Below are positions 1 to 54,655 of a stretch of DNA of 64,000 bases, piece after piece. The notes under the pieces were generated by a model, which was given only the letters and a program-made list of their open reading frames with translations, did not search any database and was not told where the DNA came from. Within the stretch, counting starts at the first letter, position 1. Each line of letters opens with the position of its first letter. The position numbers were made by a program, and so were the translations under genes. Source of the DNA: a virus; IMG/VR virus record IMGVR_UViG_3300022932_000001, positions 62,001 to 126,000 of that record. One strand, given 5' to 3'.

Positions 1-211
1 AAAGACCTAATGCTATTTCTTCAACACTATCATTTAATAGTTTACCTTCAGCTAATGCAGATTGTATATATGGAGTACTAGCTATTACTTTTGCTGCACC
101 TTTATCTTGTACATACTTAACTAAGTCTTTGTATAAGATTGATGGTTGCTCATTAGTAGCTAGTACCTTTTCTATTTTATCTTCACTACGATACACTTGG
201 CATGCTGCCAT
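1..211 (-). CDS. Partial virion-region protein, runs off left end
   Basis: Start of an open frame read leftward and cut by the window edge; 70 residues are visible, beginning MAACQVYRSEDKIEKVLATN. The ATG lies 16 bp past the stop of the giant polymerase gene, so it should be the next gene of the same late transcript. The visible part is soluble and helical, with no signal peptide or membrane segment. In crAss-like phages large virion or injected proteins often sit beside the polymerase gene, but nothing in this fragment identifies a family. Function unknown. Confidence 0.6.
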   Translation of the reverse strand, partial: MAACQVYRSEDKIEKVLATNEQPSILYKDLVKYVQDKGAAKVIASTPYIQSALAEGKLLNDSVEEIALGL

Positions 212-227: not shown

Positions 228-3200
228 TTATGCACAATTATCATCTAATGGATTATTATTGTTCTTAAACGTTGACTTAAATAGATCTGCAAAATCTTTC
301 ATTCTATCTTGATCAACATCTGCTTGATCTGCATTAGCATTAAAGAATGAGTTGAGCATATTAGATGCTAAATCATCTTGTTCTGGTAATGGAACTTCAT
401 TATACATATCAGCAGATGGTTCTGATTGATAACTTGTAATTGCTTCAGCAGAGTCTTCTGAATTATATCCAAATAAATTAAGTAAATCCAATGGAGTTTT
501 GACACTATCTTTTAATTCTTGTGTTAAGTCATTATATAACCCCCCACTAAAAGATACACCTTTGTTTGTTACTTTAGATGTTATACCAAACTTTTTAGCT
601 AAAACATCTACTGGAGATTCACTATTTGTAAAGTTAATATTATTTCCTGATAATGCACCAGTTTTCTTAACAGTTTCACCAATAGGTGCAAGTCCCATAC
701 GTTGTTCAATATCTGAAGCATCCATATTAGAATATCTTCCAGTATTCTCTTGAGCATTACCAAATTGTTTTCTAACTCTTGGTTTCTTAGGTATTACTGG
801 AATAGGTCCAAATAACTCTCCAATCATAGTAGATTTTCTACTTCCTGTAGGAGTGTATTCTTCATATATAGCTCCTAATCCATTAGCAACATATTCACCT
901 TTTTGAATAAGTCTATTTGGATTTGATTCATCTACTGTAATATCACCAACTTTCTTTTTGTCTTTACTATCTTTAGTAACAGCTATAAGTTTATAATAAG
1001 TTCTTTTACCTTGAATATTACTATCTACAATTACATAAGGAAATGCATATTTACCTAGAGCATTAGAACGAAAACCTTTAGCATCTAATAAAGCTTTATT
1101 TTTTTTAAGTTTAGCTTTCTCAGCATCATTAAATTTACCAGTTCTTTTTATTTGTATTATACCTTGAGTAGTACCAGTATCAAACATTTCTTTTTCATCT
1201 CTGATACCTGCCCATAAGTTAATAGTTATACGAGCTTTAGGTAATTCAACTTCAGGAGTTTTAGTAGTATCATCTTTAACTTTTGGATCAAGTTGGGCTA
1301 ACTTTTCTCTTAAAGTAAGTTCTTTAACTGATTCATCTTTTTTAATTTGTCCAGATTTAGTATAAGATTGAGGAACAAATTTCTTTACATCAGGATCTTG
1401 CGTTTCTTCAAATACAGGATTTCTATTCATGATCTTTGTAATCTCAAAAGTATTACCTATATGAGAAGTATAGGATTTCATAAATTCATTAAACAAATCA
1501 GTAGATTGAACACCAAATGTATCAGAATATTTCTGATCAATACCTTTTGTATCAAGTGGCATTTTCAATACACTATTAACTTGTTCAGTAGATTTAAGTA
1601 AATCACCAAACATAAATGTAGGTATATATCTTATGAATGAATTAGACTTGAACTGTCCAGCATCTTTAACTAAAAGATAGTTAAATATATCTACAGCATT
1701 AGCTCTAGTATCATCATTCTGATATATCTCTAAGAAACTATCTTTAAGTTTTTCAACCTGATACTCACTTAATTTAGCCCAAGTATTAGCTTCAGCTTTA
1801 TTAATACCATCTCTGTTAAGATCATTCATTGCAGTAACTTTATCATTGTTAGTTACTTGTGTAGAAATAATATTAACAAATTTAGAAGCAAAGTAGTTAT
1901 CAGGAAGTTTAGCTCTGATAGTTTTAAATGTATCTATAATATCATTGAAATCTTCACCTTTTAGTTTAGCAGACTCATCATAAATCATTGCATTATCTAA
2001 AGTAGATAGTGTTCTCAATTTATTATTGTCTAATAAAGACTTCATATAAGCTTTTATAGAAAGGTAAGATAACAAGTCTCTTTTTAGAATTGTATTAAAT
2101 TCTTTTTCTGTAGATTTTCTTACACTAAGATTTTCTTTGACTATAGTAGATATACGTTGGAATACGGGAGTTTTCTCTATAAACATAGTTTGAGACATAT
2201 GATCAATTTGATCAGCAGTCTGAATATAGTTATACATAAACTCATGATATGGTCTAGATTTATTAGTAGCCATAAATACTTGACGTAAATCAAATGGTAG
2301 TTTAGATTTATAGAAATCTGAATTATCCATTCTTAACCCAAGCTCTTCTATAGTAGTTTTAATATCTGCTAAGTTTTCAAAGCTTGTTCCAAGACCTTTA
2401 GTTAATTTAAGTACTTTAGCTACTTTAGAGAAATTAGCTGCTTGTGCTTTAATACCTTTGAATGATTGTAATACTGCATATTGTAAATCAGCATTATCTC
2501 CATTTGTATTAAGACCATCATCTAATAAATCATCTGTAAGATCCATAATTTCTTCTTCAGATCTTAACTTACTATATTTTTCTATAATGTTATCTAATAA
2601 TTCACCTTTCTTAATTTGTTGTTCTGTACCAGTTTTAATTTTGTTATTAGCAATCTTAATCTGTGCAAAGTACTCTCTTATAGAAGGTTGTAATAAAAAT
2701 CTAATCGCAGATTTAATAGGTACACCTTGTGCAAGCATATTAGTAACATATCCAATAGCTTCTATATTAAGACCTAATCTAGCTGCTAATCTTTCCTTAG
2801 CATTATCTGTCATTGCAGATACTACTGTAGAAATAGATCCAAATATTCTATCACCAGTATAATCTCCTGTAATAGGATCAAAAGCTTTTAATGACTCTTT
2901 ACCTGATTTATCTCTAGGAGAATATGTATTAAATGTATGACCATTTAATTTGAATAAGAATAAGTCTTCATAATTAGGAACTCTTGTTACTTTACCATCT
3001 TCAGCTACTTCTTCAGATATAGCAGATATGTATGAGCTTCTTAAGTTTATATTGAATGAACTTAAGATAGAGTATGCTAAGATAGAGTTTACAGCAGGAC
3101 CAATATTTCTAGATCCCTCTTTATTGTTTGTAAAGGATTTATACTTACCTATTATACTATCTGTATCTACAGCACCCTCATTAACAATATCAACTATTTC

Positions 3201-6200
3201 AGGTACTTCAGAGAAGTCACTTAGTAATTCATTTACTATGTTTTTTAATGGATCTACTGATGCAACTTCAAATGCAATTGGAGCTCTACCTTCTTCTTGT
3301 TCATTAACCATATATTCATTACTAACTAAAGCAATTTTCTGAGCTAATATTCTGTTGTTAAGAACACCAGTGTTTATTTCACCATTTACTTTAACGTAAT
3401 CTATATATTCTTTAGGAGTTGAAGGTAATCCAATAAGTCTCAATGCTTCTTTATATAGAACCATTTTATCATCAATTGTTTCAACTGATAATACATCAGA
3501 TAATATACCTAATGCTTCTCCTGGTTCTAAATCATCAGATATTGTAGACTCAGTAATATCTTTTTTAAGTTCTCTAATAGTTAATTTAAAATCTTTATTA
3601 TTACCAAGCATATAAGTTACATATTCATCAAATTTCTCTTCTGTAGTAACTGCTGTGCCATAAGCTAATCTTTTACCATCTTTACGATAAGTATCAGCTA
3701 TATGCATATATAGCTTATCAATATCAAAATCGGCTCCTGATATCTCTATAAGTTCGTGTGGATATATACCTGTACTACCATAAAAAGCTGGCATTGTATC
3801 AACCATTCTTAATGATATAGTTGAGTGTTTATCCTGTGATGGAATACGTACACCAAAAGCTTTAGCTAAAGCTTCTGGTATTTTTTCACCAGGTTTTAGA
3901 TCCATTAGTTCAGCAAAGTGAGGAGGAAGTACAAATTCAGAGTATCTTCCAATTATATTACCTTTCTCATCATACTCAGCTACATTGTGACGTAAATCAT
4001 CTATGTAATAATCACCAACTTTAAGTCCTTCAAACTCTCTATCTAATACATTATTCCATTCATTAGCTTCAGCATAATCATTTGGAGATAATTTAACTTC
4101 ATCTGTTCTGATTATATTCCAAGCTATTGGTTGATTAGTAACAGGATCTAACTTAGTTACTTGTTTAACTACTTTATATCCATAGTTAGACATCAATGCT
4201 ATTGAATGTCCAGGTACTTTCTCACTCATTACTCCTTTAGAGAAATAAGCTAAGAATAATTGAGTATACTTATCTAGAGTAATTGGATTATTTAAGTTAT
4301 ACTTAGGTTTACCAGTTTTATCTACTTCAAAGAAATCAATCAATTGTGAGTCAGCTCCAGTAGCTCTAAGATTATCTACAGCTCTTTTCTGAAACTTAGC
4401 TAACTTAGGAGTTACATTTTCTAAATTAATAGATGATGATAACTCTTCAAATGCACCTTCAATATCAAAGATCTCATTTCTAGCAGTCATATAATTATTC
4501 TTAACACGTTGAGCTGTATCTGCAAGATACAATTGTTTAAGAGCTCCTATGCTTGTCTTGTTACCTAAGAAATCTACTTCAGTATCATCATTTTGTTCAG
4601 CTAATATTAACTGTTTAGCTTGAGTTGGATCTGTAATAACTAACTTGTTACTTGGATTTTCTAACTGTAATCTCCAGAATTTAGTTTCCTGACGTTGGAA
4701 GTTGTGATCTTTAGCTTCTTTAGCAGATGCTGCAACATTAACTTTCAATCCTTTGGAAGCCGATTTAGGTACAGAATATGCAATAGTATTATTTCTAGAC
4801 TCAAAGTCTTCTAACTTTTCTCTAAGATCATGTAATTCTTGTTTACCTGGTAAAGCTTTCCAGGTCCCATTATCGTTATATGAAGTTAATTCTTTAGTAA
4901 GCATAACAAATGATGTCTTGATATACATCTTTCCATCATAGTATACTAACTTCATTGAGTTGAACATGGAATGAAGATCTTTAAGACCATCTATCTTATT
5001 ACCAGTTTTAGGATCAGTAGTACCAAAGATTTCTTTAGCAGTAAGCTGTTCACCATTCTCAATCTTATCAAGCATTTTAGCTGTAAATGGATCTAATTTA
5101 CCTAGACCATGCAAAGTATATCTCATACTTTTTACAGTACCCCAAGTTTGAGCATCAGCTTTTTCACCAATACCACCACTATATTTACCTCTATATTGAG
5201 GATCTTCAAATTGAAGTATATAACTTTCAGTAAATTGTTCAGTAATACCCACTTGTGGTGCTATTACAGTACTTTCTAATGATGCTCCAGATGCATTTGC
5301 ACCTCTAGCTCTTTTAACTTCATCAACACCATCTTTTAATGATGCTGCTTGATCTCCTAATAATAGTTGGTTTAATGATAATGTATTGATATAATCATTT
5401 ACTAGTACTTGACCAATATTATGTTCAATCTTATTATATATAATATTTAATTGAGAGTTCTTTCTTTCATTAGATACTTTCTTTTTACCTTCTTGAGTAT
5501 AGAAACCATCTTGAATATAATTATCAATTAAGTTATTTGTATATGTTTGTTTTACTCCTGAATTTAAATCTACTTGATTCTTAGTAATTACTCCTGTAGA
5601 AGATAATAACTCAACAGTATCAGCAATCTGACCTTCCCAATAAGCTTTAATCTGATTAGTGATCTCAGATTTCATTGAGCTAATATTAAACTCTTCATTT
5701 AATGCAGACTCTTCTATAGAAGTTTTAAGATCACCTAACATAAGACCAGTTTTATATAGAGTTAATCCTCTACCTTTAGAGTAATCTCTTTTACCTGTAG
5801 TCTTATTAGTACCATAGTGGTAACCATCAATCTCATCAATTATTCTATCACCAGCTCCTATATTGTTTATTTCATCTTTAACTCTTTTAATTCTTTCAAA
5901 TTCATTAACTACTTCGTTATATAATATATCAGCAGCCTCATCAGATACTTTTACGTTTTCTGATTTATCTAAAGTAACCGCTTTAATTACAGGAAGTCCT
6001 AATGTATCTCCAGTATTACTAGCTTCTAGTACTCTAATAAGATGTTGAGCTGTTCTAAATGTTCCACCATCTTCAGTTTTATATTCTTTACCATAAGCAT
6101 ATACATCAAATAAACTGGTTAAGAATTCTCTGTTAGAGAATGACCCATAAGTGATACCTTTATTTTTATTAGCTGATATACCTTTATCCTCTCTTATAGA

Positions 6201-9200
6201 ACCATCTTCTTCAGATTTACTTAATACAGAAGATTTAGCTCCGTCAATACGTTTAATACTTAAGTCACCTTGAAGTACTTCAAATTTCTCTGAGTTTAAT
6301 AAATAGTTGTTCTCTAAGAAAGGATCTGCTTTAAGTTCATCAATATAAGCATCACTATTAAGTTGTTGTATTCTTACTAAGTGATAAGTAGGTAATTGGT
6401 GAGCATATACTAATTCACCATCAGCATTTTTCCATGATGAGCTGTAAACAGTTTCATCAAATACTCCATTACCTTTAGCTAAATTATTAATACGTGTTAT
6501 TACACCACCTTTACCAAGATCATTAACAGCTTCTTCAGCTTCTTCTTCACCTTCTTCAAGATTTACTGGATCAGTATTTCTTTGATCATCAATATTTTTA
6601 GAGAATGGATCTTCACCAGATTGAATAGATCTTATTATTTGTTGTATATCTTCTCTAGTAGCAAAGTATGTTTCAGCATATGCATTAATTAAAGTCTTTT
6701 GAGCCTCAGTTAATACAGATGCATCTTTATTAGATACAATAGAAAACTTAACAAATGCTGGATCTAATGATATACCTATATCATTCTTAAGTTGATTTGA
6801 TATTTCTTTAGATTGAACCTCCAACTTGTCATCTTCTATAGATAGGTCTTTATCCATTAAAGTATATAAATCTTTTAATGATCCAACTCTATCATCATAG
6901 AATTCACTTCTAGCATCAGCATTTCTTAAAGTTAATACTTGATCCTGAAATACTCTTACATATGCATTTTGCCATGCAGAGAATTGTGTCTTAGCAGAAT
7001 CCCTTCTATTAGCTAACATGACATTACTCATTTTAGCTTCTTCACGTATATCTTTGTTAATAAACAAATAATCTACTGAGTATTGATTAAATCCTTTTAT
7101 AACTTGTTGTACAAGTCTAGCTCTTTGAGGATTTGTAGATACCCAAGTTCCATCTTCATTGAATTCAATACCTGCATCATTAAAGAATTTAGTAATAAAT
7201 TTACCAGTTTCAGTTTCATCAGACTTTAATAATCTAAGTCTGTTCATAACCATATTCTGATCACCAATATTAGCTACAGCTTTAAGCATACCATTGTATA
7301 CAAGGTTTGCATTAACAGCTTGTAATAAAGGTACACCATCTTTTAATTGGCTATTACCAAACTCATCTACGTATTCAAATGTAGTTGTTGCTATATATTG
7401 TCTTAAGAAGTTTGATAATGAACCAAATCCACCAATGGAATGTGTTTCTTTCCAAGAGTCAGTAGTTACTCTGTCTCCATATTCATCAACAGCTTCATCA
7501 AATACATCACTATCTAGACTTTGTTTAAAGCCCATTAATCTTAAATGTACATCAACTGCTTCTAATAAAGAAGCTCTATTTTCTTCTTCAGAGAAGACTG
7601 TATATCTATCTTGTAATCTTTGAAGATAATTTTCCATGTCAGCCTCTTGACTTTCATCAGGAAATAATCTATCTATTTCATTAGAATAGTAATCATCCTC
7701 TCTATAAGGATTATACAATTCTTTATATTCATCCAGAATACTTTCTAGTAATTGTTTTTTATTATACTGCTCTACTTGGGATAATCTATCATAGAATATA
7801 GAACTAATACTAGCAGCTAGTTGATCCCCTTCTTGTTGAGATAAATATCTGTCAATTACTATATCATTACCATTTTCATCTTGTACAATATCTTCACCTA
7901 CTTTAATTACTTTTAAAGCTGGTGTAGTAATCATATTTGATTCTTCCCTGGTAAATTGATTTTGTTGTAAATTACTATTTCTGTATTTACCATTATCAAT
8001 ATCACTGAATAGATTTTCTATATCAGTAAATGATCTTCCAGTAAATAATCTTTTAATCCACTCCATTATTTTAGCAAAGAAACCTTTAGCTACATATGAA
8101 GTATTAACTTTATTATCTGACTTCCAATCATCAAACCTATCTGCTAAATATTCTTCATAATAAAGCTCTTCCAATTCTGTTGGAGTTAGATTATCATATG
8201 AAGGATGTAATTGTTTGAATTCCTCTAAAGCAGATTTAATATTAACTTTATTAGCTTTTAATTCACGTTTAGCTATATCTCTTAATTGAGTTATTTGCTT
8301 ATCATTAAGTAATAACCTAAATGCAGCATGGAAAGCCTCATGATATTTATAAGGAGTATTTTCACCAATATTAATTCTACCTTTTATAGTAGTATTACCA
8401 TCTCTTAGTGTATCTAAATAAGATACAAACATACCTACAGTAATCTTATTAGTAGATAGGTTTTTAGTTAAATCATTAACTTCTTCTACAGAAATAAACT
8501 CAGGTAAGTTATCTTTTACCCAAGTATTAAATTTATCAATATGTTCTACATCAGATGCTTCAAATTTCTCTCTTGATATAACTTTAAATGCTCTACCATT
8601 CTTTACATTAAGTTTAGCTTTAAGTTCATCTAATTGTTTACCATATATAACTTTAGCTTGTTGAGTAGCTTGTATTCTAGCCTTACCAGCAGTTAATCCT
8701 TCAGCTATTAACTCAGCAGATTTAGTTCTAATATATTCCATCTGATTAGCTTTGATCTCATCAGATAGTTCTTTAAATGAACCTGTTTGTGCAGGAGCTG
8801 TTTGTGTTGGATTAGATTGAATTGCTTTTACAGCATTATCAATAGCTTGTATAAAATTAGGTCCTAAACCATTTATAACACTTTCTCTACTCTCACCATT
8901 AACAATACGTTGAGCATATTTTTGAACTGCATCAGTTGATCCGTTTTCAATACTTCCAGCTATAGCATCAAATGCTGCTGTAACTTGTTCTCCAACACTT
9001 AATGTATTTTGTACAGTTTTAGATGCAGCTATCTCACCTAATATCTGAGCCCTTAAAGCTTCATCAATAGGTACACCCATGTTATCCTGACTAGTAGCTT
9101 GATTAAGTTCTTTAACTTTAGCAGGATCTACTTTATAAGTCTTAGGATTTACTACATCATATTGTATTCTTGTGTCAACTGCTTGAGCAGGAGTAGCAGG

Positions 9201-12200
9201 AATAACAGCTTCAATAGTATCTTTAGGATTATATGTTAATTGTATATTTTTAACTACTGGAGGATTTAAGAAAGTACTTAAGTTGTTAACTCCAGCTGAT
9301 CCTATATCACTACTAATAGCATTTTTGAAATTATCTTTAGTTAAAGTAACTGTAATAAATTCACTAGGATTTTTAGCGGTCTGATTATATTTAACTATAG
9401 CTTCATTTATTCTACTAATAACTTGGTCTATATCTTCAAAGTTAAGTGGAATATCTTCTTCACTTTCTTTTACAACTATAGAATGTTTAATAGTATTAGA
9501 ACCTTGTGGTATATTAAATTTAAGCTGTAGATTTCCCATAGCATTTACGTAGAAATCTACATAAGTACCTCTATTTTCTAAAGGAAGAGCTATGAATAAC
9601 TTACTAGCTATTTCATCATTTAATACATCATTATATGTTTCATCTTTACCACCAGTATATTTAGGTTTAGTTACATTACCTTTTGAGTCATATACTTCAA
9701 CTGTTTTAGATTCTTTAACAGTTAAGTTGTTCTCTTTAGATAATTTAGATCTTTCATTAATCTTAGATACTAAATCACTAAACTGTGTATCATTCCATGG
9801 ATCAGATGATAATTGTACAAATCTTATTGTACCATTAGGAAGTTTAACTACAGCTACGTATCTACCTAACTGTTCTGTTAAATCTCTACCTTGAGCTTTA
9901 GCTTCTTTAACTTCTTTTGCTATTTGTTTAGCATCAGCTCCAATAGCATTTGTAATAGGAATTACTTGAGTAGTAAATTTACCATTTTTATATTTTCTTA
10001 CTCTATCTAATACATAAGTATAACCATTGATAGTACTATGTTCTAGTTCAGATAGTTTAACACCTTCTTCAGAAAGAGCATTATCAAATTCACCAACAGA
10101 TATATTAAGATCTAACATCTGTTCTATTTGTGGTTCAGTTAATTTAGTAGATACACTATTACCTAATACTTTAGATAAAGTACTAAATAGTCTTCTACCT
10201 TTAATAAAATTTTGTTTAAAAGTATCTAATGCTTGCTTAGCATCTACTCCTGTAGTATCAAATATTTCTGAAAATTGAGCTATTGTTAATTTCTCTATAG
10301 GAACATTCTTACCTTGTTTATCTCTTACAGAATAATGAGTATAATTAGTTATGTAACCAATAGGTAAACCAGCATATTCTAATCTTACATTTAAATAATC
10401 ACTATTAACTTCTAAATTACCATTAGGATTACCTGTAGATTCACCAGCAAGAGTTGTACTTCTAGGACCTCCTTTAGAGACAGTCATAGTTAACCTATCA
10501 GCTATATCTTCTTTAGTCATATTAGCTAAGAATTCATCCAATCTTTTTTGAGCTGCTGGTATACTTTCACGCTTACCATTAACTTCATTTTGATGTGGAT
10601 ATATTCTAATTAGTTCATTTACTCTTTTAATCTTAAATTTATTAGGACCATTAAGATCTACTGGAGGTAAGTTAGCAGGAAGTACTTCAGTTTCTGTTTG
10701 TAGTCCTTCTAATACTAATCCATCTAATGAAGTAATTGATTTAGTATCATTTGCATCATTAACATTTTTAATACGTATAGCAAATACATTTAAACCTGCT
10801 TCAGGTGATTCACTAACAACTTCATATTTTTTACCAGTTGAAGTCTCATTAAATATAAAACCTTTCTTTATATTCTGACCATCAAATACATAAAAACCTG
10901 TTACATTATCTTCTGATGCAACAACTTCTGGATTATTAGGAGCTGGAGTTTCTGTTAAAGGGGTTGCTTCATTGTTTAATGATTTAATCTCCTGATCAGT
11001 ATCTTCATTAATTTTATTAATACGTTGTTGTATAGTATCTAATTGATCTTTTAATTCATCAGATATTTGTCCAGGAACAAGATCTTCAAGTCTAGTTTCT
11101 ACACCTGTTTTAATATTAGTTATTACTATACCATCTTTAGATAATTCAACTACATGTTCACCATCCTCTTCATACAGTTCTTCAAGTTCTTCTATAGAGG
11201 AGTCTCTACGATCATTAATTTCCTTAATCCTTGGATCATTAGGATCAACTTGAGGTGTAGTAACTTGTAAGTTTTCTCTTACTTCTTCTTCTTGAAGATG
11301 TTGATTAATAGGTGCAACAATTTCTTGTTCAATAGAATCTCTAAAGTTCTTTAATCCATTTTTAGTATCTGCATATAATGCAAATTCTAATCCCATAGCT
11401 CTAGCAGTATTTTGATACTGAGCTTTTTCCATCAAAGCTTTTTGATAAGCTATATTTAATGAACTAGTATTCTTAGCTGAATTTTCATAACCATAATATC
11501 CTCCTTCAGAGGGGGGTAGATTTTCTAATGATAAACTATTATCTTTAAGATGTTTATTTTTTTCTTTATTAAGTTCTGCTAATAGTTGTCTAGCTACCTT
11601 TAATTTAGTAGAGTTATTAGAACCTGCTTCTAGAGCAGTAATAAAAGCTTTTTGTGAATCAATTCTAAATTGCAAAGAATTAACTGCATCAACACTCATG
11701 TCAGATAAGTTTGATGTTTCTGGTGAAAGTGTTTGAGCTTTAATAGCTTCAACATCTTTATTAATAGTATTTACTATTCCAGTAAGAATACTTTGCTCAT
11801 CAGCTAATCCTGTTAATCTATTTATTCTAGCATTCTCTTCAGCAGGTTTACCTGTAATAAGAATACTATTCTTAATTAAGTTATTTTGAGCAATAATTTG
11901 TTTAGCTAAGGTTTTATATTCACCTATATCTTCTCTACTAGATGGATCAAATCCCATTTTAGCTAATGCTTCAGGTGAAGCATTACTAGCTTGATCTAAT
12001 TTCTCAGTTAAAGTATCTTCTATACCAGCTTCAATATGAGCTTGTACATAATTTCTAAATGATATATCTCTTAAATATTTAGCTTGATTTTTATCTTTAA
12101 GTGTATCAGCTAACTCAGCCATAGTTGAGTTTAAACTAAAGTTAGTAATAATTTCACCTAGTTTACTTTCATTAACTATAGGTTGATTATTTTCATCTAA

Positions 12201-13721
12201 CTTTAATTTAGATATTTTTTCTCCAGTTGGATTACCTTCTGTATCTAATATATCATCTTCTATTGTATCATATAAATTACCAAACTTTAACCATTGACCT
12301 TGTGATTCATTAAGTCTTTGTATAGCTTGGTCTGTAGTAATTCTATCTCTTCCAAGTTGTTTAGCATTACCTATACCACCCATTACACCACCAAGTATAG
12401 CACCAAGTCCAATACTTGTAGCAGCTTCTTGATCATCTCCCATTGTAGCATCAACAATCTGTTTTCCAGCTTTTTTAAGTACTTGAGTATAGTCTTCAAT
12501 ACCTGCTACTTTTCCAGCCCCACCAAATTCCTGATTTAATCTTTGTATAGCTAACTGTGTGTTTTCTTCAACATAACCTTCAGATAAAGTTCCAATTGCT
12601 ACACCTTTAGCAAATTGACCATATCCTGTATCTAAGAATTTACCCCATTTAGTTTTAGCAACACCTCTTTCAAATGTATCTCCAGCAGTATTTGCAGTTA
12701 CTCTACCTACAGTAGATTCAGCTACACCTAATGCTTTAAATAAATACTTCATCTGTAAAGCATTTGTAGCTCCAAGTAATGCTGCATTCATTAAGAATGT
12801 ATTACGTGCTGCTCCACCTGCTGCAACTTTTTTTTCTTCTTCTGTATATTCTACTCCTGTAGTAGGATTTATCTTACCATCTAATGATGCTAACACATTC
12901 TTTCTAACATCAGAAGCTTCATACATTGACTCAGAAGCAGTAGCTATTGCCCAAGTAGTAGCAGCATCAAATCCTTTAGCAAACTTTTGTGCAGATCCAA
13001 GATATCTTTGAGCTGTTTCTAATCCATTTACAACCTCACCAGCAGCATTAACACCCATTCTAGTTCTAGACAGCATTTGAGCTAATTTAGCTCCTGTACC
13101 AAGCTTAGATAAAGCCATACCAGGTATAAATGCTGATGCCATAAATGCTGCACCATCAACTACGTCATTTGTCCAAAAGTCTAAGTCAGTAAATGCCCTA
13201 GAAAAGAATCCTTTATTAACATCTGCTGCTTCTTGAAATGTAGGTAAGAATTCATTCTTTACTGTTTCTTCAGCAGATTCGGCCCATTTAGATATAGCAT
13301 TATCTGAAGCAGATGCAATAAATCCATCTTCTGATGTCCAGTTAGTAGGATTTAATAGAGATGTTACAAAACCTAATCCACCAATAGTTTTAGTAGCAGC
13401 CAATGCTGGTAATTTTAAACCAACTGCTGATACTAAGTCTACAAGATCTCCACCTATACCTTGTTGTTGAGCATAGAAATCTTCATTATCTCTATTCTTA
13501 GAAAAACCATAAGATTGATCTAAATATTTTTTAGCTTGAGAATAATCTACTTGAGATGGAGCTAAAGTACCTGTACCATAAAATGGTGTTGATGTAGCCG
13601 TCTTAGTCTTCAAAGCTGACATAGCTTCTTCATAAGTAGGCTCAGGTTTTTTAACAGGAGGGGTTGTAGAAGTAACGGGTTTAGTAGGATCTATTAATGG
13701 AGTATTAACTTCTTCAGTCAT
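228..13721 (-). CDS. Giant virion RNA polymerase fusion with zincin protease motif (4,497 aa)
   Basis: Uninterrupted 13.5 kb frame. Around residue 3,328 it has GADFDIDKLYMH; DFDID is the metal-binding catalytic loop of the crAss-like virion RNA polymerase (type protein gp66 of Cellulophaga phage phi14:2), which is packaged and injected to transcribe early genes. Around residue 1,790 lies YKYHEAFHAAF, a clean HExxH zinc-protease motif, followed about 45 residues later by an acidic stretch (LYYEEYLADRF) that could give the third ligand. The first 500 residues hold several hydrophobic or glycine-rich stretches (ILGGVMGGIG near 440), as in injected cargo proteins; long charged coiled-coil stretches follow. 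So it appears to be cargo, protease and polymerase in one chain. Many relatives split these over two or three genes. The motifs are seen; self-processing is inference. Fourth gene of the 910/817-residue cargo operon. Confidence 0.9.
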   Translation of the reverse strand: MTEEVNTPLIDPTKPVTSTTPPVKKPEPTYEEAMSALKTKTATSTPFYGTGTLAPSQVDYSQAKKYLDQSYGFSKNRDNEDFYAQQQGIGGDLVDLVSAVGLKLPALAATKTIGGLGFVTSLLNPTNWTSEDGFIASASDNAISKWAESAEETVKNEFLPTFQEAADVNKGFFSRAFTDLDFWTNDVVDGAAFMASAFIPGMALSKLGTGAKLAQMLSRTRMGVNAAGEVVNGLETAQRYLGSAQKFAKGFDAATTWAIATASESMYEASDVRKNVLASLDGKINPTTGVEYTEEEKKVAAGGAARNTFLMNAALLGATNALQMKYLFKALGVAESTVGRVTANTAGDTFERGVAKTKWGKFLDTGYGQFAKGVAIGTLSEGYVEENTQLAIQRLNQEFGGAGKVAGIEDYTQVLKKAGKQIVDATMGDDQEAATSIGLGAILGGVMGGIGNAKQLGRDRITTDQAIQRLNESQGQWLKFGNLYDTIEDDILDTEGNPTGEKISKLKLDENNQPIVNESKLGEIITNFSLNSTMAELADTLKDKNQAKYLRDISFRNYVQAHIEAGIEDTLTEKLDQASNASPEALAKMGFDPSSREDIGEYKTLAKQIIAQNNLIKNSILITGKPAEENARINRLTGLADEQSILTGIVNTINKDVEAIKAQTLSPETSNLSDMSVDAVNSLQFRIDSQKAFITALEAGSNNSTKLKVARQLLAELNKEKNKHLKDNSLSLENLPPSEGGYYGYENSAKNTSSLNIAYQKALMEKAQYQNTARAMGLEFALYADTKNGLKNFRDSIEQEIVAPINQHLQEEEVRENLQVTTPQVDPNDPRIKEINDRRDSSIEELEELYEEDGEHVVELSKDGIVITNIKTGVETRLEDLVPGQISDELKDQLDTIQQRINKINEDTDQEIKSLNNEATPLTETPAPNNPEVVASEDNVTGFYVFDGQNIKKGFIFNETSTGKKYEVVSESPEAGLNVFAIRIKNVNDANDTKSITSLDGLVLEGLQTETEVLPANLPPVDLNGPNKFKIKRVNELIRIYPHQNEVNGKRESIPAAQKRLDEFLANMTKEDIADRLTMTVSKGGPRSTTLAGESTGNPNGNLEVNSDYLNVRLEYAGLPIGYITNYTHYSVRDKQGKNVPIEKLTIAQFSEIFDTTGVDAKQALDTFKQNFIKGRRLFSTLSKVLGNSVSTKLTEPQIEQMLDLNISVGEFDNALSEEGVKLSELEHSTINGYTYVLDRVRKYKNGKFTTQVIPITNAIGADAKQIAKEVKEAKAQGRDLTEQLGRYVAVVKLPNGTIRFVQLSSDPWNDTQFSDLVSKINERSKLSKENNLTVKESKTVEVYDSKGNVTKPKYTGGKDETYNDVLNDEIASKLFIALPLENRGTYVDFYVNAMGNLQLKFNIPQGSNTIKHSIVVKESEEDIPLNFEDIDQVISRINEAIVKYNQTAKNPSEFITVTLTKDNFKNAISSDIGSAGVNNLSTFLNPPVVKNIQLTYNPKDTIEAVIPATPAQAVDTRIQYDVVNPKTYKVDPAKVKELNQATSQDNMGVPIDEALRAQILGEIAASKTVQNTLSVGEQVTAAFDAIAGSIENGSTDAVQKYAQRIVNGESRESVINGLGPNFIQAIDNAVKAIQSNPTQTAPAQTGSFKELSDEIKANQMEYIRTKSAELIAEGLTAGKARIQATQQAKVIYGKQLDELKAKLNVKNGRAFKVISREKFEASDVEHIDKFNTWVKDNLPEFISVEEVNDLTKNLSTNKITVGMFVSYLDTLRDGNTTIKGRINIGENTPYKYHEAFHAAFRLLLNDKQITQLRDIAKRELKANKVNIKSALEEFKQLHPSYDNLTPTELEELYYEEYLADRFDDWKSDNKVNTSYVAKGFFAKIMEWIKRLFTGRSFTDIENLFSDIDNGKYRNSNLQQNQFTREESNMITTPALKVIKVGEDIVQDENGNDIVIDRYLSQQEGDQLAASISSIFYDRLSQVEQYNKKQLLESILDEYKELYNPYREDDYYSNEIDRLFPDESQEADMENYLQRLQDRYTVFSEEENRASLLEAVDVHLRLMGFKQSLDSDVFDEAVDEYGDRVTTDSWKETHSIGGFGSLSNFLRQYIATTTFEYVDEFGNSQLKDGVPLLQAVNANLVYNGMLKAVANIGDQNMVMNRLRLLKSDETETGKFITKFFNDAGIEFNEDGTWVSTNPQRARLVQQVIKGFNQYSVDYLFINKDIREEAKMSNVMLANRRDSAKTQFSAWQNAYVRVFQDQVLTLRNADARSEFYDDRVGSLKDLYTLMDKDLSIEDDKLEVQSKEISNQLKNDIGISLDPAFVKFSIVSNKDASVLTEAQKTLINAYAETYFATREDIQQIIRSIQSGEDPFSKNIDDQRNTDPVNLEEGEEEAEEAVNDLGKGGVITRINNLAKGNGVFDETVYSSSWKNADGELVYAHQLPTYHLVRIQQLNSDAYIDELKADPFLENNYLLNSEKFEVLQGDLSIKRIDGAKSSVLSKSEEDGSIREDKGISANKNKGITYGSFSNREFLTSLFDVYAYGKEYKTEDGGTFRTAQHLIRVLEASNTGDTLGLPVIKAVTLDKSENVKVSDEAADILYNEVVNEFERIKRVKDEINNIGAGDRIIDEIDGYHYGTNKTTGKRDYSKGRGLTLYKTGLMLGDLKTSIEESALNEEFNISSMKSEITNQIKAYWEGQIADTVELLSSTGVITKNQVDLNSGVKQTYTNNLIDNYIQDGFYTQEGKKKVSNERKNSQLNIIYNKIEHNIGQVLVNDYINTLSLNQLLLGDQAASLKDGVDEVKRARGANASGASLESTVIAPQVGITEQFTESYILQFEDPQYRGKYSGGIGEKADAQTWGTVKSMRYTLHGLGKLDPFTAKMLDKIENGEQLTAKEIFGTTDPKTGNKIDGLKDLHSMFNSMKLVYYDGKMYIKTSFVMLTKELTSYNDNGTWKALPGKQELHDLREKLEDFESRNNTIAYSVPKSASKGLKVNVAASAKEAKDHNFQRQETKFWRLQLENPSNKLVITDPTQAKQLILAEQNDDTEVDFLGNKTSIGALKQLYLADTAQRVKNNYMTARNEIFDIEGAFEELSSSINLENVTPKLAKFQKRAVDNLRATGADSQLIDFFEVDKTGKPKYNLNNPITLDKYTQLFLAYFSKGVMSEKVPGHSIALMSNYGYKVVKQVTKLDPVTNQPIAWNIIRTDEVKLSPNDYAEANEWNNVLDREFEGLKVGDYYIDDLRHNVAEYDEKGNIIGRYSEFVLPPHFAELMDLKPGEKIPEALAKAFGVRIPSQDKHSTISLRMVDTMPAFYGSTGIYPHELIEISGADFDIDKLYMHIADTYRKDGKRLAYGTAVTTEEKFDEYVTYMLGNNKDFKLTIRELKKDITESTISDDLEPGEALGILSDVLSVETIDDKMVLYKEALRLIGLPSTPKEYIDYVKVNGEINTGVLNNRILAQKIALVSNEYMVNEQEEGRAPIAFEVASVDPLKNIVNELLSDFSEVPEIVDIVNEGAVDTDSIIGKYKSFTNNKEGSRNIGPAVNSILAYSILSSFNINLRSSYISAISEEVAEDGKVTRVPNYEDLFLFKLNGHTFNTYSPRDKSGKESLKAFDPITGDYTGDRIFGSISTVVSAMTDNAKERLAARLGLNIEAIGYVTNMLAQGVPIKSAIRFLLQPSIREYFAQIKIANNKIKTGTEQQIKKGELLDNIIEKYSKLRSEEEIMDLTDDLLDDGLNTNGDNADLQYAVLQSFKGIKAQAANFSKVAKVLKLTKGLGTSFENLADIKTTIEELGLRMDNSDFYKSKLPFDLRQVFMATNKSRPYHEFMYNYIQTADQIDHMSQTMFIEKTPVFQRISTIVKENLSVRKSTEKEFNTILKRDLLSYLSIKAYMKSLLDNNKLRTLSTLDNAMIYDESAKLKGEDFNDIIDTFKTIRAKLPDNYFASKFVNIISTQVTNNDKVTAMNDLNRDGINKAEANTWAKLSEYQVEKLKDSFLEIYQNDDTRANAVDIFNYLLVKDAGQFKSNSFIRYIPTFMFGDLLKSTEQVNSVLKMPLDTKGIDQKYSDTFGVQSTDLFNEFMKSYTSHIGNTFEITKIMNRNPVFEETQDPDVKKFVPQSYTKSGQIKKDESVKELTLREKLAQLDPKVKDDTTKTPEVELPKARITINLWAGIRDEKEMFDTGTTQGIIQIKRTGKFNDAEKAKLKKNKALLDAKGFRSNALGKYAFPYVIVDSNIQGKRTYYKLIAVTKDSKDKKKVGDITVDESNPNRLIQKGEYVANGLGAIYEEYTPTGSRKSTMIGELFGPIPVIPKKPRVRKQFGNAQENTGRYSNMDASDIEQRMGLAPIGETVKKTGALSGNNINFTNSESPVDVLAKKFGITSKVTNKGVSFSGGLYNDLTQELKDSVKTPLDLLNLFGYNSEDSAEAITSYQSEPSADMYNEVPLPEQDDLASNMLNSFFNANADQADVDQDRMKDFADLFKSTFKNNNNPLDDNCA

Positions 13722-13730: not shown

Positions 13731-16184
13731 TTATTTCATAATGGCATTAGCTAAATCTGGATTAGCTGCCATTTGTTGTGAAAATTGATATGCATCAAAT
13801 GCAGATCTAAATGTCTCTCTTACAGGAGTATTAGATCCTGATGGGTAAAGATAATAAATATTATCATTATCTGATCCAAATTTTTTATCTATTCTGTAAG
13901 CACTTTTAACCCCATTGTTATTAAAGTTATAAAAAGTAGATTGATATTTACTTCCTGGTTTACCTGTTCTATTCTCTAGAGTAGATATTAGTTGTCTACT
14001 ATAACCAGACATATTAGCAAATGGATCTAAGTGTGTATCTAATGATTTATTAGTTACTTCAAATTGACCTGTCTGTTCATTGAATGTTGTAGGATAGCCT
14101 TTAGTAGTTAATTTATTAACTACAGCTTCTGTATCAATTTTACCTTCAGGATCTTGTACACTAAAATATATTTTATTTCTATCAGCATTAGGAGAATAAC
14201 TTACTTCTGTAAGTTTACTCATATCTAATCCTGTAAGTGATGTAAGTTTGTTCTTAGTAGCTTTAACGTTATCTGAGTCATCTCTAAATGTAAATGCTTT
14301 ACGTTGATCAACTTTCTTTTCACCAAAGTACTGAGCTATATATTCATTATACTTTTTAGTGTCTTTATTGCTATTTAAGAATTTTAATACTTCTGCTGCT
14401 GTTCCAGCTATACCACCTAGTGTACCAGTCTTATTATCAGCTTGTCTATATGATTTACCTCCTATAGAAATATTAAAAGCATCACCTCTTTTTGGTGCAA
14501 TAGAAAATTCTTTATTAGCAACCATTTCCATAACTCTTTTAGGACTTACAGTAATTGAGCTACCATCTTCTCCTTGTAAAGTATAAGTATCTGTTTTAGC
14601 TAAGTTATTTAATACATTATCCACCTGTTTAGATTTAGCTACATATCCAGGCATTTTACTTTCAGCATATTGTTGAGCTTGTCTTCTAGTATTTGATGCA
14701 TCATCAATAGTAAGATGTCTCATATTACTTCTTTGATTGAATTCAAGTACAGCATTATCTTGTTTTCCTTTAGGAGATTCCATATACATTTTGACTTGTT
14801 TAGCAGTCAATTTATTTAATGGAACACCACTTACTTCAGATATATGTTCTTTTAAATTAACACTATCTTGATAACCTTGTCTTTGAACTACTCTTACTTG
14901 ATCATCTAATCCAGTTAAAGAAGTAGTACCTAATACATCTCCAGGTCCAGCGGGTAAATCTATAACAACAGCTTCACCATTTTTATCTTTACCTTCTTTT
15001 TGTTCCTTAAGAGCATCTAATCTTAACTTTTGACCAAACCTACGATCTTCACCAGCTTCTCTAAGATTAGCTCTATAGTTTTCATTCTGTTCACCAATCA
15101 TGAATCTCTTCATGTCCTGAGCATCTTTCCACATACCAAAAGCTACAGTATCTTCTGTAATCTCTTGTTTGATATCTTGATGTTCAAAACCTTTAGATAC
15201 ACCATCTATAACAGAATTATAATATAGATTATAAGCTAATTTTTCTTGATTAGCTTTAATATAGTTTAAATCACCTTTAGATATTTTATCAGAGTCTTCT
15301 CCTATAGATTGTATAGAAGCAGATAATTGATTTTTAAGATCAATTAATTTATCTCTCTGTACAGGATCTTTAGTTGTTTTAATAAGATTATCTGTATCAT
15401 TAATCTTATCTTGTAACTGAGATATATCTTTATTAGCTGTATCTCTATACATAGAAGCTATAGTATTAGGATCACCTAATCTTACTGTTGCTTCAATTTG
15501 TAATTGTCTTTTAGCTTTATCTGATAATACTCCATTAAGATAATCTTTAATTTCAGATTGTCTCCAACTTTTATCATCAACAGTTTCTTTATAAAAACCA
15601 TTTAATCTAACTAAAGAAGATGAAGAAGGTTTAAACTTCTCCATAACTTCTCTTATTTCTTTTTTAGTATCATAATATGGTTCATAGTATCTTTTATTAG
15701 AATAATACTTTTTCCATGAATCAGGAGAACCATCATTTATGTATTCGGCTTTTTGTTGTCTTACATAATTTAAATTATCAATACTAAAGTCTTTACCTCC
15801 ATCTTGTTGACGTAAAGAATCAGCATACTGTTCTTGTTGCTGATAATGTTTACTTATAGAAGAATTACCAAGAAACTCTGTATCATTATATAAAGGAGCA
15901 AATACGTTATTAGCAGATGCTACATTTTCAGGTAAAGATAAATCAACAGAAGATAAGTCTCCTAGATTTTTAAATGCATCTTTTAAAAACTTATCACGTT
16001 TAGATATTTGATCTTGTTTTAATTGAGGCATATTCAATAATCCAGAATAAGTCCCCTGTAGGGAGGAATACCCTTGATCATAAGATCCTTGTTTTAATCT
16101 TAAGGTCTTATCAACCACATCCCAATTTGGTTGAAATGGTTGAATATCTGGTATGAAATCTGGTTGCCCTAAATAATTAGCCAT
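13731..16184 (-). CDS. Putative virion cargo protein (817 aa)
   Basis: Large hydrophilic protein just upstream of the polymerase gene (9 bp gap). It opens with MANYLGQPDFIPDIQPFQPN; the middle third (about residues 230-400) is charged and probably coiled coil (LQDKINDTDNLIKTTKDPV). No catalytic motif, signal peptide or membrane segment is visible. Genes of this size and position in crAss-like phages encode proteins stored in the head or tail and ejected with the genome; that role is inferred from context. The ATG is preceded by an AT-rich run ending ATTATAATATAACAT that resembles the upstream element of other late genes here, so it may have its own promoter. Confidence 0.7.
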   Translation of the reverse strand: MANYLGQPDFIPDIQPFQPNWDVVDKTLRLKQGSYDQGYSSLQGTYSGLLNMPQLKQDQISKRDKFLKDAFKNLGDLSSVDLSLPENVASANNVFAPLYNDTEFLGNSSISKHYQQQEQYADSLRQQDGGKDFSIDNLNYVRQQKAEYINDGSPDSWKKYYSNKRYYEPYYDTKKEIREVMEKFKPSSSSLVRLNGFYKETVDDKSWRQSEIKDYLNGVLSDKAKRQLQIEATVRLGDPNTIASMYRDTANKDISQLQDKINDTDNLIKTTKDPVQRDKLIDLKNQLSASIQSIGEDSDKISKGDLNYIKANQEKLAYNLYYNSVIDGVSKGFEHQDIKQEITEDTVAFGMWKDAQDMKRFMIGEQNENYRANLREAGEDRRFGQKLRLDALKEQKEGKDKNGEAVVIDLPAGPGDVLGTTSLTGLDDQVRVVQRQGYQDSVNLKEHISEVSGVPLNKLTAKQVKMYMESPKGKQDNAVLEFNQRSNMRHLTIDDASNTRRQAQQYAESKMPGYVAKSKQVDNVLNNLAKTDTYTLQGEDGSSITVSPKRVMEMVANKEFSIAPKRGDAFNISIGGKSYRQADNKTGTLGGIAGTAAEVLKFLNSNKDTKKYNEYIAQYFGEKKVDQRKAFTFRDDSDNVKATKNKLTSLTGLDMSKLTEVSYSPNADRNKIYFSVQDPEGKIDTEAVVNKLTTKGYPTTFNEQTGQFEVTNKSLDTHLDPFANMSGYSRQLISTLENRTGKPGSKYQSTFYNFNNNGVKSAYRIDKKFGSDNDNIYYLYPSGSNTPVRETFRSAFDAYQFSQQMAANPDLANAIMK

Positions 16185-31519: not shown

Positions 31520-34500
31520 CTATGCTATAGTTAACGTTCCTCTATTTGCTACAATACTCCACTCATTAGTAGTTATTTTTTCAACTACAACAGTATCATA
31601 TCTTGATTGTGCCTGAAGGTATCCAGCAGTTCCTACTGTGGTATCACTTGCTCCATGGATAACTTGTAATGCATTCTGAGCTAATCTCCATAATCCAGCT
31701 CCTAAACCTCTTATTGCTACTTGATCACCTATATTAGCATTTACATCCAAAGGAAGTGTAATTGTAACAAGTGCAGCATTATTTGTAATGTATTTAGTAT
31801 TAACAGTTGCTTGTTGTGTAGTTGTTGTTACAGTAACAGGAGTATTAGGTAAATTAGCTTTTAAATCTAATTCTACTTTTCTAACTACATCAGTTGGATT
31901 AGTTGGAGCTAAAGCAACTGTTAATTTACCAGTAGCTCCATTTAACCTCACAGCCTCTGTGTTGACGCTATTTACTGTAGTACCCGAAGTAGCTGTTGGT
32001 GAGTAAAATAAAACAATATCTCCTGTTGTTCCTGACCCTGTTGCAGCACCGCCTCTTAAGTTAATAGGTCTTCCGTTATTATTTGTCCCTGATCCTGATC
32101 CACCGTATAAGTTTAGCGGTTGAAAAGACGCTATACCACTAGTATTTGATATACCTCCACCTACCAAATTACTAGTTAGTATATTGACTGATGTGTCCAT
32201 TACAAAGTATCTGCTTCCTGCTCCTCCCACAGAATTTAGGATATCACCTCCCATCCCTGTATCTCCAAATGAAGCATTCCAATTTGAACCAAAACCTATT
32301 ACTACGGGGCCTACATTGGGATTAAATAAAAGTCCGTTAATAACACCATTTCCACTTCCAATTCTTAATTGAAGAGTTTTAGCAGGGCCTGCATTTCCCC
32401 CATCATTACCAATCTGTCCACCACCAATGTTAGGGTTGTCTGTAAATAATATACGATTCCTAATATTAAGGTCTTGAGCCCTTCCTACTCCACTTATATT
32501 GAAGTTTGAACTTGCTTGCATGACAGTAGTGTTTTGGATATAGCTAGTAGAAGCATCTACTTTTGAAAGTAATCCAGCATTAGCTGCATCAACTGTTAAG
32601 TACTTAACTCCAGTACCATCAACTGTTAATGAGTTTTGTTTATTAGCTAATAACTCATATGGAGTTAGTGCTGATGATGTAAGAATACTACTATCTACTT
32701 GTGCAGAAGTTACTTTACCCCAAATAGGTGCTATACCAATACCCTGAGATAATAATACATTACCTGTTGCTACAGCAGCTCTTTTAGACAAAGCTGAAGT
32801 AGTGCTAGCATATAATAAATCTCCTATTGCATATACAGTTTGTCCAGTACCTCCATTAGCTGCCGCTATTGTAGTAGCGTTCCAAATACCAGTAGTTACA
32901 GTACCTAGAACAGTAGGTCTCGAAAGTTGATAAGATACTCCTGATTGTCTAGTCCAAAGATTATTACTTTGTGACCAAACATCTCCATTTGTCCATGTAG
33001 TTGGTGTTATTGATTCTAGATTAATAGCTGCTGATTCAAATACAGCTGAATTTTTTATAACCCCTGTGTAACCTCGAGTGGCTACTTGGCCTATAAAACC
33101 ACTACCTAACCCTGATCCATCAAAAGATGGGTTAACTGTAAATGTGTGAGACCCAGTATAACTTCTACCTCCTGTAGTTGGTACGACACTGATTACTACA
33201 CCTCCAGAAACTGTTACTGTTCCTATTGCCCCAAATCCAGCAGCGCCAGCTAAAGTCAGTAAAGGAACACCTGTATAAACTCCGTCAAGATAGCCTGTTC
33301 CTCCACTGTTTATATTCGCAGTTAACATTCCAGAACCACTATTGAAACTAGCCCCAAACCTATAACCCACTAACCTGTCGTTATTAGCTATCGGAACTAA
33401 ACTTGTCTTTATATAACCAGCCTTTGCTTCTCCTGCGTTAGGATAAACTGCTCCTGCTATTGTCTGAGTACTTAGAAACGTATTAGCAGAATTGGTTTTA
33501 GCATATTCTCCCTCTACACTCAAGATGGCATCAGATTGAGTACTGTCTTTTAACGGTAAATATCCGCTATTAATCAGCTTATCCGCAATTAACCGAGCAC
33601 CTGATACGTTAGGATGTACGCCATCACCAGCTAAGTGAATAGCATTGTCCCATTCAGGTGAAACATCTACAACTTTAGTATAATTTGCTACAATCCAGTT
33701 ATACAAGGCTGACTGATTAGCAGTCACTGTTTCTGGAATCGGTAATAAATGTATAACTGTAAAACCTGCTGTTTCTAGTAAGGTGACAGCTGATGTGTAG
33801 TTACCTTGCCATACTTCACTAGGAATACCAGTGGCTAGATCGTTTCGTCCATAATTGACTGTTACTACGCAAGGGGCATTATACATAATGATATAAGGTA
33901 CTGCTGCTAAGAATTCTGATGTTCTATCGCTACCACCTACATATGGACTTACAATACCAACTTTTTGCATAAACGAAGGGACTCTCTGTAATACAGGGAT
34001 AGTCATTTTACTATCTCCCATTACAATCGTGTCAGGTGTTCTGTTGCTCGCAGTAGTGACTTTTATCTGCGAGATCTCTATACTACCTCCATAGTTGTAT
34101 ACAACTATATTAGAAGTATTAATATATAAACCTGGTCTGTAAGATATAACGGATTTAGCTTGACTAAGGTTAGTGAACTTAGCAGTTAATTGATTCCCTC
34201 GTTGAGATAGCTTTATAATACAATAATCTCCAGGATCAGTAGTAAAATCACTTATAGTATTTGCTATAGAATTTAGTTCTCTCGATGTTTGTAAACTGTT
34301 AGCAAGAATGTTATAACCTACAGTTCCGTTATTAGCTCCGAATAACGATTTTTTGCCAATAGCAATACCGTATCCAGTAATATCTAAAACTCTAAACATT
34401 ACCTCAATATCGATGTTGTCATCGTTATTAACGAGCCCATTTAAAATGATGTACTTTGTAGCATCTTCTGATCCACCATTAAAAACTAGTCCTTTATTCG

Positions 34501-35497: not shown

Positions 35498-35507
35498 TTT
35501 TTTATGA

Positions 35508-54561: not shown

Positions 54562-54584
54562 AAGTGTTGGTTTATTTATATATG

Positions 54585-54655
54585 AGGCAAATACTAGATT
54601 CGAACTAGTGTAAACAGTTTTGCAGACTGTCAGTTAACCACTCACCCAATTTGCC
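54585..54655 (-). tRNA. tRNA-Cys (GCA), class I
   Basis: Acceptor stem GGCAAAT/ATTTGCC, anticodon stem ACAGT/ACTGT with loop CTGCAAA, T-loop TTCGAAT, and U73 (a Cys identity base). No encoded CCA. Lies between two small genes on the same strand. Confidence 0.9.

What the first reader, a model, noticed from the sequence alone, without database searches (positions are those of the whole stretch)
228..13721. Cargo, HExxH protease and virion RNA polymerase fused in one 4,497-residue chain
One frame carries the DFDID polymerase loop near residue 3,328 and an HEAFH zinc-protease motif near 1,790, with glycine-rich hydrophobic stretches in the first 500 residues. Many crAss-like phages split these parts between genes. 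A built-in protease could release an active polymerase after packaging or injection.
Basis: partly seen in the sequence, partly recalled or inferred. Interest (0 to 1): 0.7.

Follow-up and report, generated by a model that had tools for sequence, protein, structure and literature searches.

The report
Giant virion RNA polymerase with built-in protease
This is a crAss-like phage's packaged RNA polymerase, fused in one huge protein to the part that probably helps it enter the cell and to a protease-like module; the fusion is ordinary for such phages, but the protease module turns out to recur, in two types and several positions, in virion polymerases and related injected proteins, and what it cuts is unknown.

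Summary
A single 4,497-residue frame (minus strand, 228-13721) carries HEAFH at 1794 and DFDID at 3331. It is not an assembly artefact: 31 of 35 related contigs hold both motifs in one 3,900-5,515-residue frame.

The chain is colinear with two neighbouring phi14:2 proteins: gp67 (residues 18-589) and gp66, the solved two-barrel RNA polymerase (54 bits). The HEAFH module sits before the junction. It folds confidently (pLDDT 84, pTM 0.82) as beta-sheet, HExxH helix and Glu helix. It carries the gluzincin pattern HExxH...ExxA[D/E], and its weak structural neighbours are mostly zincins.

The fusion is not new. Five known Suoliviridae encode the same 4,272-4,502-residue chain, unrecognised in annotation. 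Giant fused crAss-like polymerases and a crAssphage zincin annotation already exist.

The release idea is weakened. In 13 of 63 contigs the same module lies on a separate, oppositely oriented gene. A second zincin type in these gene blocks matches the N4 virion polymerase and other podophage internal virion proteins. N4 polymerase works full-length, membrane-tethered.

Most likely this is a single-chain, ejected, tethered polymerase whose protease serves entry rather than mandatory release. The substrate is unknown.

The parts
228..13721 (-). Single 4,497-aa chain: N-terminal cargo part + zincin module + two-barrel virion RNA polymerase
   Evidence: ORF; homology; same architecture in 31 IMG/VR loci and five known Suoliviridae
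11232..13688 (-). Residues 12-830: N-terminal part homologous to phi14:2 gp67 (18-589) and to the separate upstream proteins of L003/L004 (42% identity); glycine-rich hydrophobic stretches in residues 1-520
   Evidence: E 9e-27 to gp67, E 3.5e-164 to L004_1842; for glycine and hydropathy
8622..8921 (-). Residues 1601-1700: variable linker before the zincin (lowest conservation up to that point, indels)
7923..8615 (-). Residues 1703-1933: zincin-A module, HExxH + ExxA[D/E]; most densely invariant stretch of the chain
   Evidence: alignments; AF2 model (pLDDT 83.7, pTM 0.82); fold searches
8328..8342 (-). HEAFH, residues 1794-1798 (two predicted zinc ligands and catalytic Glu)
8139..8153 (-). 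EYLAD, residues 1857-1861: predicted third zinc ligand E1857 with D1861 four residues on (gluzincin signature)
   Evidence: E1857 in 73/75, A1860 in 73/75, D/E1861 in 73/75; this motif was not a search pattern, the scan that supplied most of the rows
7452..7922 (-). Residues 1934-2090: poorly conserved junction; split relatives end or begin hereabouts (crAss001-type zincin protein ends 153 residues after its HExxH; gp66 residue 1 extrapolates to about W 1970)
   Evidence: junction position is an inference from offsets
1422..7454 (-). Residues ~2090-4100: RNA polymerase part, colinear with phi14:2 gp66
   Evidence: 54 bits, E 8e-14 scaled to PDB size; gp66 is identical to PDB 6vr4 chain A
3717..3731 (-). 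DFDID, residues 3331-3335: catalytic Mg-binding loop of the beta'-type double-psi barrel
   Evidence: alignment to gp66 SDFDID
231..1421 (-). Residues 4101-4497: variable C-terminal tail
1..211 (-). 5' end of the downstream 1,515-aa gene (G000:C1:57664-62211), homologous to phi14:2 gp65 'RNA polymerase associated protein'; no HExxH here
   Evidence: no zincin-B found in this contig
13731..16184 (-). 817-aa upstream neighbour, probable cargo/ejection protein (homologues in the same place in L003/L004)
   Evidence: no family match
16241..18973 (-). 910-aa upstream neighbour, probable cargo/ejection protein
   Evidence: no family match

Best explanation
It is the virion RNA polymerase of an uncultivated crAss-like phage, made as one chain. 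The N-terminal, glycine-rich part (phi14:2 gp67-like) is packaged as cargo and on ejection probably inserts into or sits at the cell envelope. A gluzincin-type protease module follows on flexible linkers. The C-terminal two-barrel RNA polymerase refolds in the cytoplasm and transcribes early genes while still tethered at the entry site, much as N4 gp50 does. The protease most likely serves entry (trimming cargo or envelope proteins, possibly including its own linkers) rather than being required to free the polymerase. Shown here: homology of the parts, clade-wide fusion, predicted fold and conserved catalytic signature of the module. Inferred: membrane role of the N-terminus, tethering, protease activity and its substrate.
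For: Parts: gp67, E 9e-27; gp66, 54 bits; gp66 = 6vr4. Fusion in 31 of 35 loci; in five known Suoliviridae. Module fold; viral structure matches at probability 1.00 to crAss-like giants; second look in PDB dominated by zincins, though all Z < 5. Signature. 63 of 67 module-bearing contigs also encode this polymerase; the module is kept even when on a separate opposite-strand gene, 13 of 63. The zincin-B module of crAss-like blocks matches N4-type vRNAP family phrog_2206, E 9e-9, and PDB internal virion protein 9sfn, E 1.2e-8, and N4 vRNAP, E 0.001. N4 vRNAP is active at full length, its N-terminal domain enters nanodiscs, and it is modelled as staying membrane-anchored (PMC12633501). Coupling of vRNAP fusions to DNA entry was proposed in PMC10770324.
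Against: No wet data. The hydrophobic N-terminal windows are only moderate (KD 1.33-1.49) and not conserved as such in all relatives, so the membrane role is weakly supported. Foldseek found no PDB match at E < 0.001. Zincin-A and zincin-B are only remotely comparable (hhalign 87% over 36 columns), so the N4 analogy is by architecture for this chain, not by homology of its own module.
Confidence: 0.55

Rival explanations
1. One reading: the zincin cuts its own chain in the flanking linkers after packaging or injection and so releases an active polymerase, restoring the two-protein state seen in phi14:2 and crAss001.
For: The module sits just before the junction, flanked by variable linkers; the split relatives have chain ends near that place; phi14:2 gp66 is active as a separate protein (review PMC10136315).
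Against: The module persists in split systems, 13 of 63 on the opposite strand, where there is no polymerase on the chain to release; fused N4 vRNAP is active and tethered at full length; no conserved cut-site motif was recognised in the linkers.
Confidence: 0.25
2. The zincin is an injected effector that cuts a host protein (defence, cell-wall or transcription factor) after entry; its place on the polymerase chain is only a ride.
For: Catalytic signature strongly conserved while position and chain vary; related zincin-B modules occur on virion proteins of other podophages without polymerase.
Against: One expects faster change of a host-facing protease; instead the module is among the most conserved parts of the chain. 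No substrate known.
Confidence: 0.2
3. The zincin fold is only structural (a dead or scaffold domain).
For: The N4 paper reports the C1 HExxH motif but no protease activity in the passages read.
Against: HExxH found at the expected place in five known fused Suoliviridae chosen without reference to it; third ligand E1857 in 73 of 75 and D/E1861 in 73 of 75.
Confidence: 0.1
4. Sequencing or assembly error joined two genes.
For: L003/L004 relatives are split.
Against: 31 of 35 loci fused; five known genomes fused; L002 is 99% identical from residue 1872 on, through the junction.
Confidence: 0.01

Closest known systems
Suoliviridae fused proteins, e.g. Buorbuivirus hominis cr4_1 KNV51_gp26 (YP_010112556.1, 4,491 aa, 'hypothetical protein'); also cr6_1, cr10_1, cr114_1, cr125_1
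   Same: One chain; HE[AG][FWY]H at 1739-2015; DFD[IV]D at 3242-3556; spacing 1,431-1,541 aa (window: 1,537); zincin-A profile matches
   Different: Deep sequence divergence; most show many in-frame TAG codons; several also carry a zincin-B in the downstream subunit, the window does not
Cellulophaga phage phi14:2 gp67 + gp66 (PDB 6vr4) + gp65
   Same: Colinear homology of N-terminus and polymerase
   Different: Separate genes; no zincin-A; a zincin-B in gp65 instead
crAss001-type Steigviridae (tikkala, cr112_1, cr85_1)
   Same: HEAFH zincin-A and gp66-type polymerase in the virion gene block
   Different: Zincin lies near the end of a separate 2,310-2,518-aa protein on the opposite strand from the polymerase
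crAssphage (Carjivirus communis) gp45 'RNAP associated protein fused to zincin protease' and gp44
   Same: Zincin upstream of polymerase; already annotated as zincin
   Different: Two genes; its zincin is not recognised by the zincin-A profile and, in a profile of four such proteins, compares with zincin-B (hhalign 98%), although its own leave-one-out test failed
Coliphage N4 gp50 virion RNA polymerase (Schitoviridae)
   Same: Giant single chain with N-terminal membrane part, polymerase and HExxH domain, ejected into the cell
   Different: Polymerase is of the unrelated T7-like type (general knowledge); HExxH domain lies after the polymerase and is zincin-B-like
Flavobacterium phage Fpv20 gp33 (4,419 aa, virion structural protein, cultured)
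   Same: DYDID polymerase loop and HExxH in one chain
   Different: HExxH lies after the polymerase; not classed in Crassvirales; polymerase match weaker (E 1e-7)

Membership tests
crAss-like (Crassvirales) virion RNA polymerase, phi14:2 gp66 type | DFDID/DxDxD loop of the beta'-type barrel | tested here: met
   D3331/D3333/D3335 aligned to gp66
crAss-like (Crassvirales) virion RNA polymerase, phi14:2 gp66 type | Extended sequence homology to gp66 beyond the loop | tested here: met
   Family profile vs gp66 54 bits, E 8e-14 at PDB size; blocks colinear over gp66 686-1835
crAss-like (Crassvirales) virion RNA polymerase, phi14:2 gp66 type | Two double-psi barrels in one polypeptide (fold) | not tested
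   Polymerase part was not folded; inferred from homology to 6vr4
crAss-like (Crassvirales) virion RNA polymerase, phi14:2 gp66 type | Packaged in the virion and active on early genes | not testable with these tools
   Needs virions
Crassvirales (the phage) | Crass-type TerL, portal, MCP, tail block with cargo genes next to it | tested here: met
   phrog_6681 TerL, phrog_6547 portal, phrog_11589 major head protein; TerL best hits Suoliviridae, with other Crassvirales and Flavobacterium Fpv phages, at 23-24%. Placement within or beside the order unresolved: its polymerases form their own clade, 100/100
Gluzincin-type zinc metallopeptidase (clan MA) | HExxH on a helix after a beta-sheet | tested here: met
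   AF2 model: strands 12-18, 45-49, 61-73, 79-87, then helix 94-106 with HExxH at 96-100
Gluzincin-type zinc metallopeptidase (clan MA) | Third ligand Glu in a downstream helix with Asp/Glu four residues on | tested here: met
   E1857 in 73/75 and D/E1861 in 73/75, in helix 149-172 of the model; geometry around zinc not measured
Gluzincin-type zinc metallopeptidase (clan MA) | Clear structural match to a solved zincin | tested here: inconclusive
   Foldseek none at E < 0.001; VIA second look led by M34, ACE2, MATCAP, BlaR1 and 3e11 zincins but Z <= 4.9
Gluzincin-type zinc metallopeptidase (clan MA) | Zinc binding and proteolysis | not testable with these tools
   Needs purified module
N4-type vRNAP (phrog_2206) | T7-like single-subunit polymerase core | tested here: not met
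   Polymerase is of the gp66 two-barrel type; the window chain has no phrog_2206 match

The most novel reading that the evidence does not exclude
A gluzincin protease module is a shared, movable component of phage internal/ejection proteins, carried by crAss-like two-barrel polymerases, N4-type T7-like polymerases and other podophage internal virion proteins alike, and it performs one common proteolytic step of genome entry that has not been described.
Probability: 0.35. Interest if true: 0.75.

Novelty: new member of a known kind. Interest (0 to 1): 0.48.

Why it matters
Virion polymerases start infection for the commonest gut phages, yet what else rides on these giant chains is mostly unexplained. 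The survey shows a protease-like module in every crAss-like virion-polymerase block examined, with its type and position changing but its presence kept, and a related type in N4 vRNAP. N4 is grown on laboratory E. coli, so whether an injected zincin is needed for entry, processing or polymerase activity can be tested directly by inactivating its HExxH motif.

Tried and rejected
Pfam and PHROG scans of the whole chain and of the module gave nothing usable. phmmer of the chain against PDB found nothing. hmmsearch of the polymerase profile through the tool missed 6vr4 because HMMER's bias filter drops it; with --nobias or --max gp66 scores 54 bits. The first AF2 model with 14 sequences was poor (pLDDT 60) and its fold searches were meaningless; the 75-sequence model replaced it. 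A genome-contig scan found no cellular or prophage relative. The leave-one-out test of zincin-B failed for L004, Fpv20, crAssphage gp45 and jaberico, so those four are assigned by motif and alignment only. No zincin-B was found in the window's contig. Literature searches for Crassvirales with metalloprotease or zincin found no open paper; Yutin 2018 and Drobysheva 2021 were not held, so earlier mention there cannot be excluded. An independent-versus-ancestral origin of the fusion could not be settled: the tree needs at least two changes. Assembly error and chance motif were rejected.

Full report
CHECK. The frame is real. It runs on the minus strand from ATG at 13721 to the stop at 228 and gives 4,497 residues in the standard code. 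HEAFH starts at 1794 and DFDID at 3331. The window is part of a 134,893-base IMG/VR record. Composition predicts 0.018 HExxH in this chain; among surveyed virion-polymerase-block proteins of at least 1,000 residues, 0.9 were expected and 26 found. Residues 1-520 are glycine-rich (10.4%) and hold the chain's three hydrophobic windows.

IS THE FUSION REAL? Yes. A scan with the HEAFH region brought 35 viral loci. In 31 of them one frame of about 3,900-5,515 residues holds both PYKYHEAFH and a D[FL]DID polymerase loop; L014, L025 and L034 are cut by the contig end and L019 has one frameshift. Many of these loci are near-copies; 16 distinct full-length chains plus the window were aligned, at 24-36% identity to the window.

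WHAT THE PARTS ARE. Residues 18-589 match phi14:2 gp67 (E 9e-27), and 12-830 match the separate N-terminal proteins of two relatives at 42%. The polymerase part is colinear with phi14:2 gp66: blocks at gp66 686-1005, 1318-1384 and 1577-1835, 54 bits and E 8e-14 at PDB scale. gp66 is identical to PDB 6vr4 and its polymerase activity is published (review PMC10136315). In phi14:2 gp67 and gp66 are adjacent separate genes. The window chain is therefore gp67-like plus zincin plus gp66-like. The separate 1,515-residue gene after it matches gp65. Upstream lie two probable cargo proteins and a crass-type structural block.

THE PROTEASE MODULE. Residues 1701-1900 have the most invariant columns of the chain (18 and 13 per hundred), between two poorly conserved linkers (1601-1700 and roughly 1934-2090). 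A first model from 14 sequences was poor. With 75 sequences the model of 1699-1933 reached pLDDT 83.7 and pTM 0.82: beta strands, the HExxH helix, then a long helix carrying EExxAD. E1857 is kept in 73 of 75 and D/E1861 in 73 of 75. This is the gluzincin pattern of HExxH plus ExxxD/E (pattern from general knowledge of clan MA). The YHEAFH columns themselves were partly a search pattern, so their invariance is biased; the Glu motif was not a pattern, the scan that supplied most rows. Foldseek gave no significant PDB match. The VIA second look placed zincins first (an M34 toxin catalytic domain, Z 4.9; ACE2; MATCAP; BlaR1; a predicted zincin, 3e11), all at Z below 5, hence suggestive only. Against viral models it matched crAss-like giants with probability 1.00.

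HOW WIDESPREAD, AND WHERE. A scan with the crAss001-type module fetched 80 more loci. Of 67 contigs tested, 63 also encode the gp66-type polymerase. In 49 the polymerase lies downstream on the same strand, median about 1,390 residues on, and in 45 of those its open frame exceeds 3,000 residues; that the zincin lies in the same frame was read directly only for the loci. In 13 it is on the opposite strand, the crAss001 arrangement. Five Suoliviridae with published genomes (cr4_1, cr6_1, cr10_1, cr114_1, cr125_1) have single chains of 4,272-4,502 residues with the same order and spacing; cr131_1 and cr108_1 look the same but are interrupted near the DFDID loop, probably by introns. So the fusion is a standard arrangement that has gone unannotated. 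The window's polymerase clade is separate from all reference families (100/100), and the fused state needs at least two changes on the tree.

A SECOND ZINCIN. Another HExxH module (zincin-B, HELxHxxT) occurs in phi14:2 gp65, in several Suoliviridae downstream subunits, inside the L003/L004 polymerase chains, upstream of the polymerase in cr116_1, and at the C-terminus of cultured Fpv20 gp33. Every crAss-like block examined has A or B or both. A profile of nine zincin-B sequences matches, in PDB, an internal virion protein (9sfn, E 1.2e-8), N4 vRNAP at its HExxH domain (E 0.001), minigluzincins (projannalysin, E 0.001; MJ1213) and a tetrameric ejection protein, gp48 (8vb2, E 0.007). Six of nine members match the N4-type vRNAP family phrog_2206, best E 9e-9; the alignment shown for phi14:2 gp65 falls at profile positions 2081-2233, the place of the HExxH domain. 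Two unrelated polymerase types therefore carry related zincins in virion chains. Zincin-A is only remotely comparable with B.

HOW IT MOST LIKELY WORKS. N4 gp50 is the nearest working model: its N-terminal domain enters membranes, its polymerase is modelled as staying tethered by a linker, its full-length form transcribes, and it has an HExxH domain for which the passages read report no activity (PMC12633501). For crAss001, virion-packed polymerase proteins are thought to unfold, pass the tail and refold (PMC10172136). PMC10770324 notes that vRNAPs fused to large proteins occur in crAss-like and N4-like phages and may couple DNA entry to transcription. The window chain fits this: an N-terminal envelope part, a protease, a tethered polymerase. 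That the protease must free the polymerase is unlikely as its general role, because it is kept where it is on another gene, and related type-B modules occur where there is no polymerase. It remains possible in fused forms. Its substrate is unknown.

NOVELTY. crAssphage gp45 is already annotated as fused to a zincin, and giant crAss-like polymerases, up to about 6,000 residues, are known (PMC10136315). This is a new, divergent member of a known kind. The recurrence of zincins across crAss-like and N4-type virion proteins seems undescribed in the open papers searched, but key subscription papers were not readable.

Noticed in passing
L142:34468-47727 (Flavobacterium phage Fpv20 gp33): A cultured phage not classed in Crassvirales has a 4,419-aa virion structural protein with a DYDID polymerase loop and a C-terminal HEVIH: a possible laboratory relative of these giant chains.
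   Followed up: partly
A4 alignment (zincin-B of crAss-like blocks) vs PDB 9sfn_G, 11gp_A, 8vb2_A: Zincin-B of crAss-like virion proteins is related to the HExxH domain of N4 vRNAP and to internal virion/ejection proteins of other podophages.
   Followed up: partly
L055:9998-17521 (cr116_1): A 2,507-aa frame has three HExxH motifs (635, 877, 2199); the first is zincin-B placed before the polymerase in the same chain, which is then interrupted at the polymerase core.
   Followed up: partly
L049 18409-18700 and L052 22317-23112: In cr108_1 and cr131_1 the polymerase frame breaks next to the DFDID region; cr131_1 has a small gene in the gap, suggesting introns aimed at the catalytic loop.
   Followed up: no
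window 31520-38120 (-): Two neighbouring large tail-region proteins (1,325 and 870 aa) each carry a GDSL lipase/acylhydrolase match (only the second passes Pfam's cut-off), perhaps capsule deacetylation.
   Followed up: no
window 54584-56125 (-) and 59959-60042 (+): A cluster of eight tRNA genes plus a second tRNA-Cys(gca) on the other strand.
   Followed up: no
L022 (65-13981): The polymerase loop reads EDLDID instead of DFDID in an otherwise fused relative on a long branch.
   Followed up: no
L144 (Pseudomonas phage KPP25): A KPP25 structural protein matched the zincin-A model with probability 1.00 in BFVD, so the module may reach beyond Bacteroidota phages.
   Followed up: no
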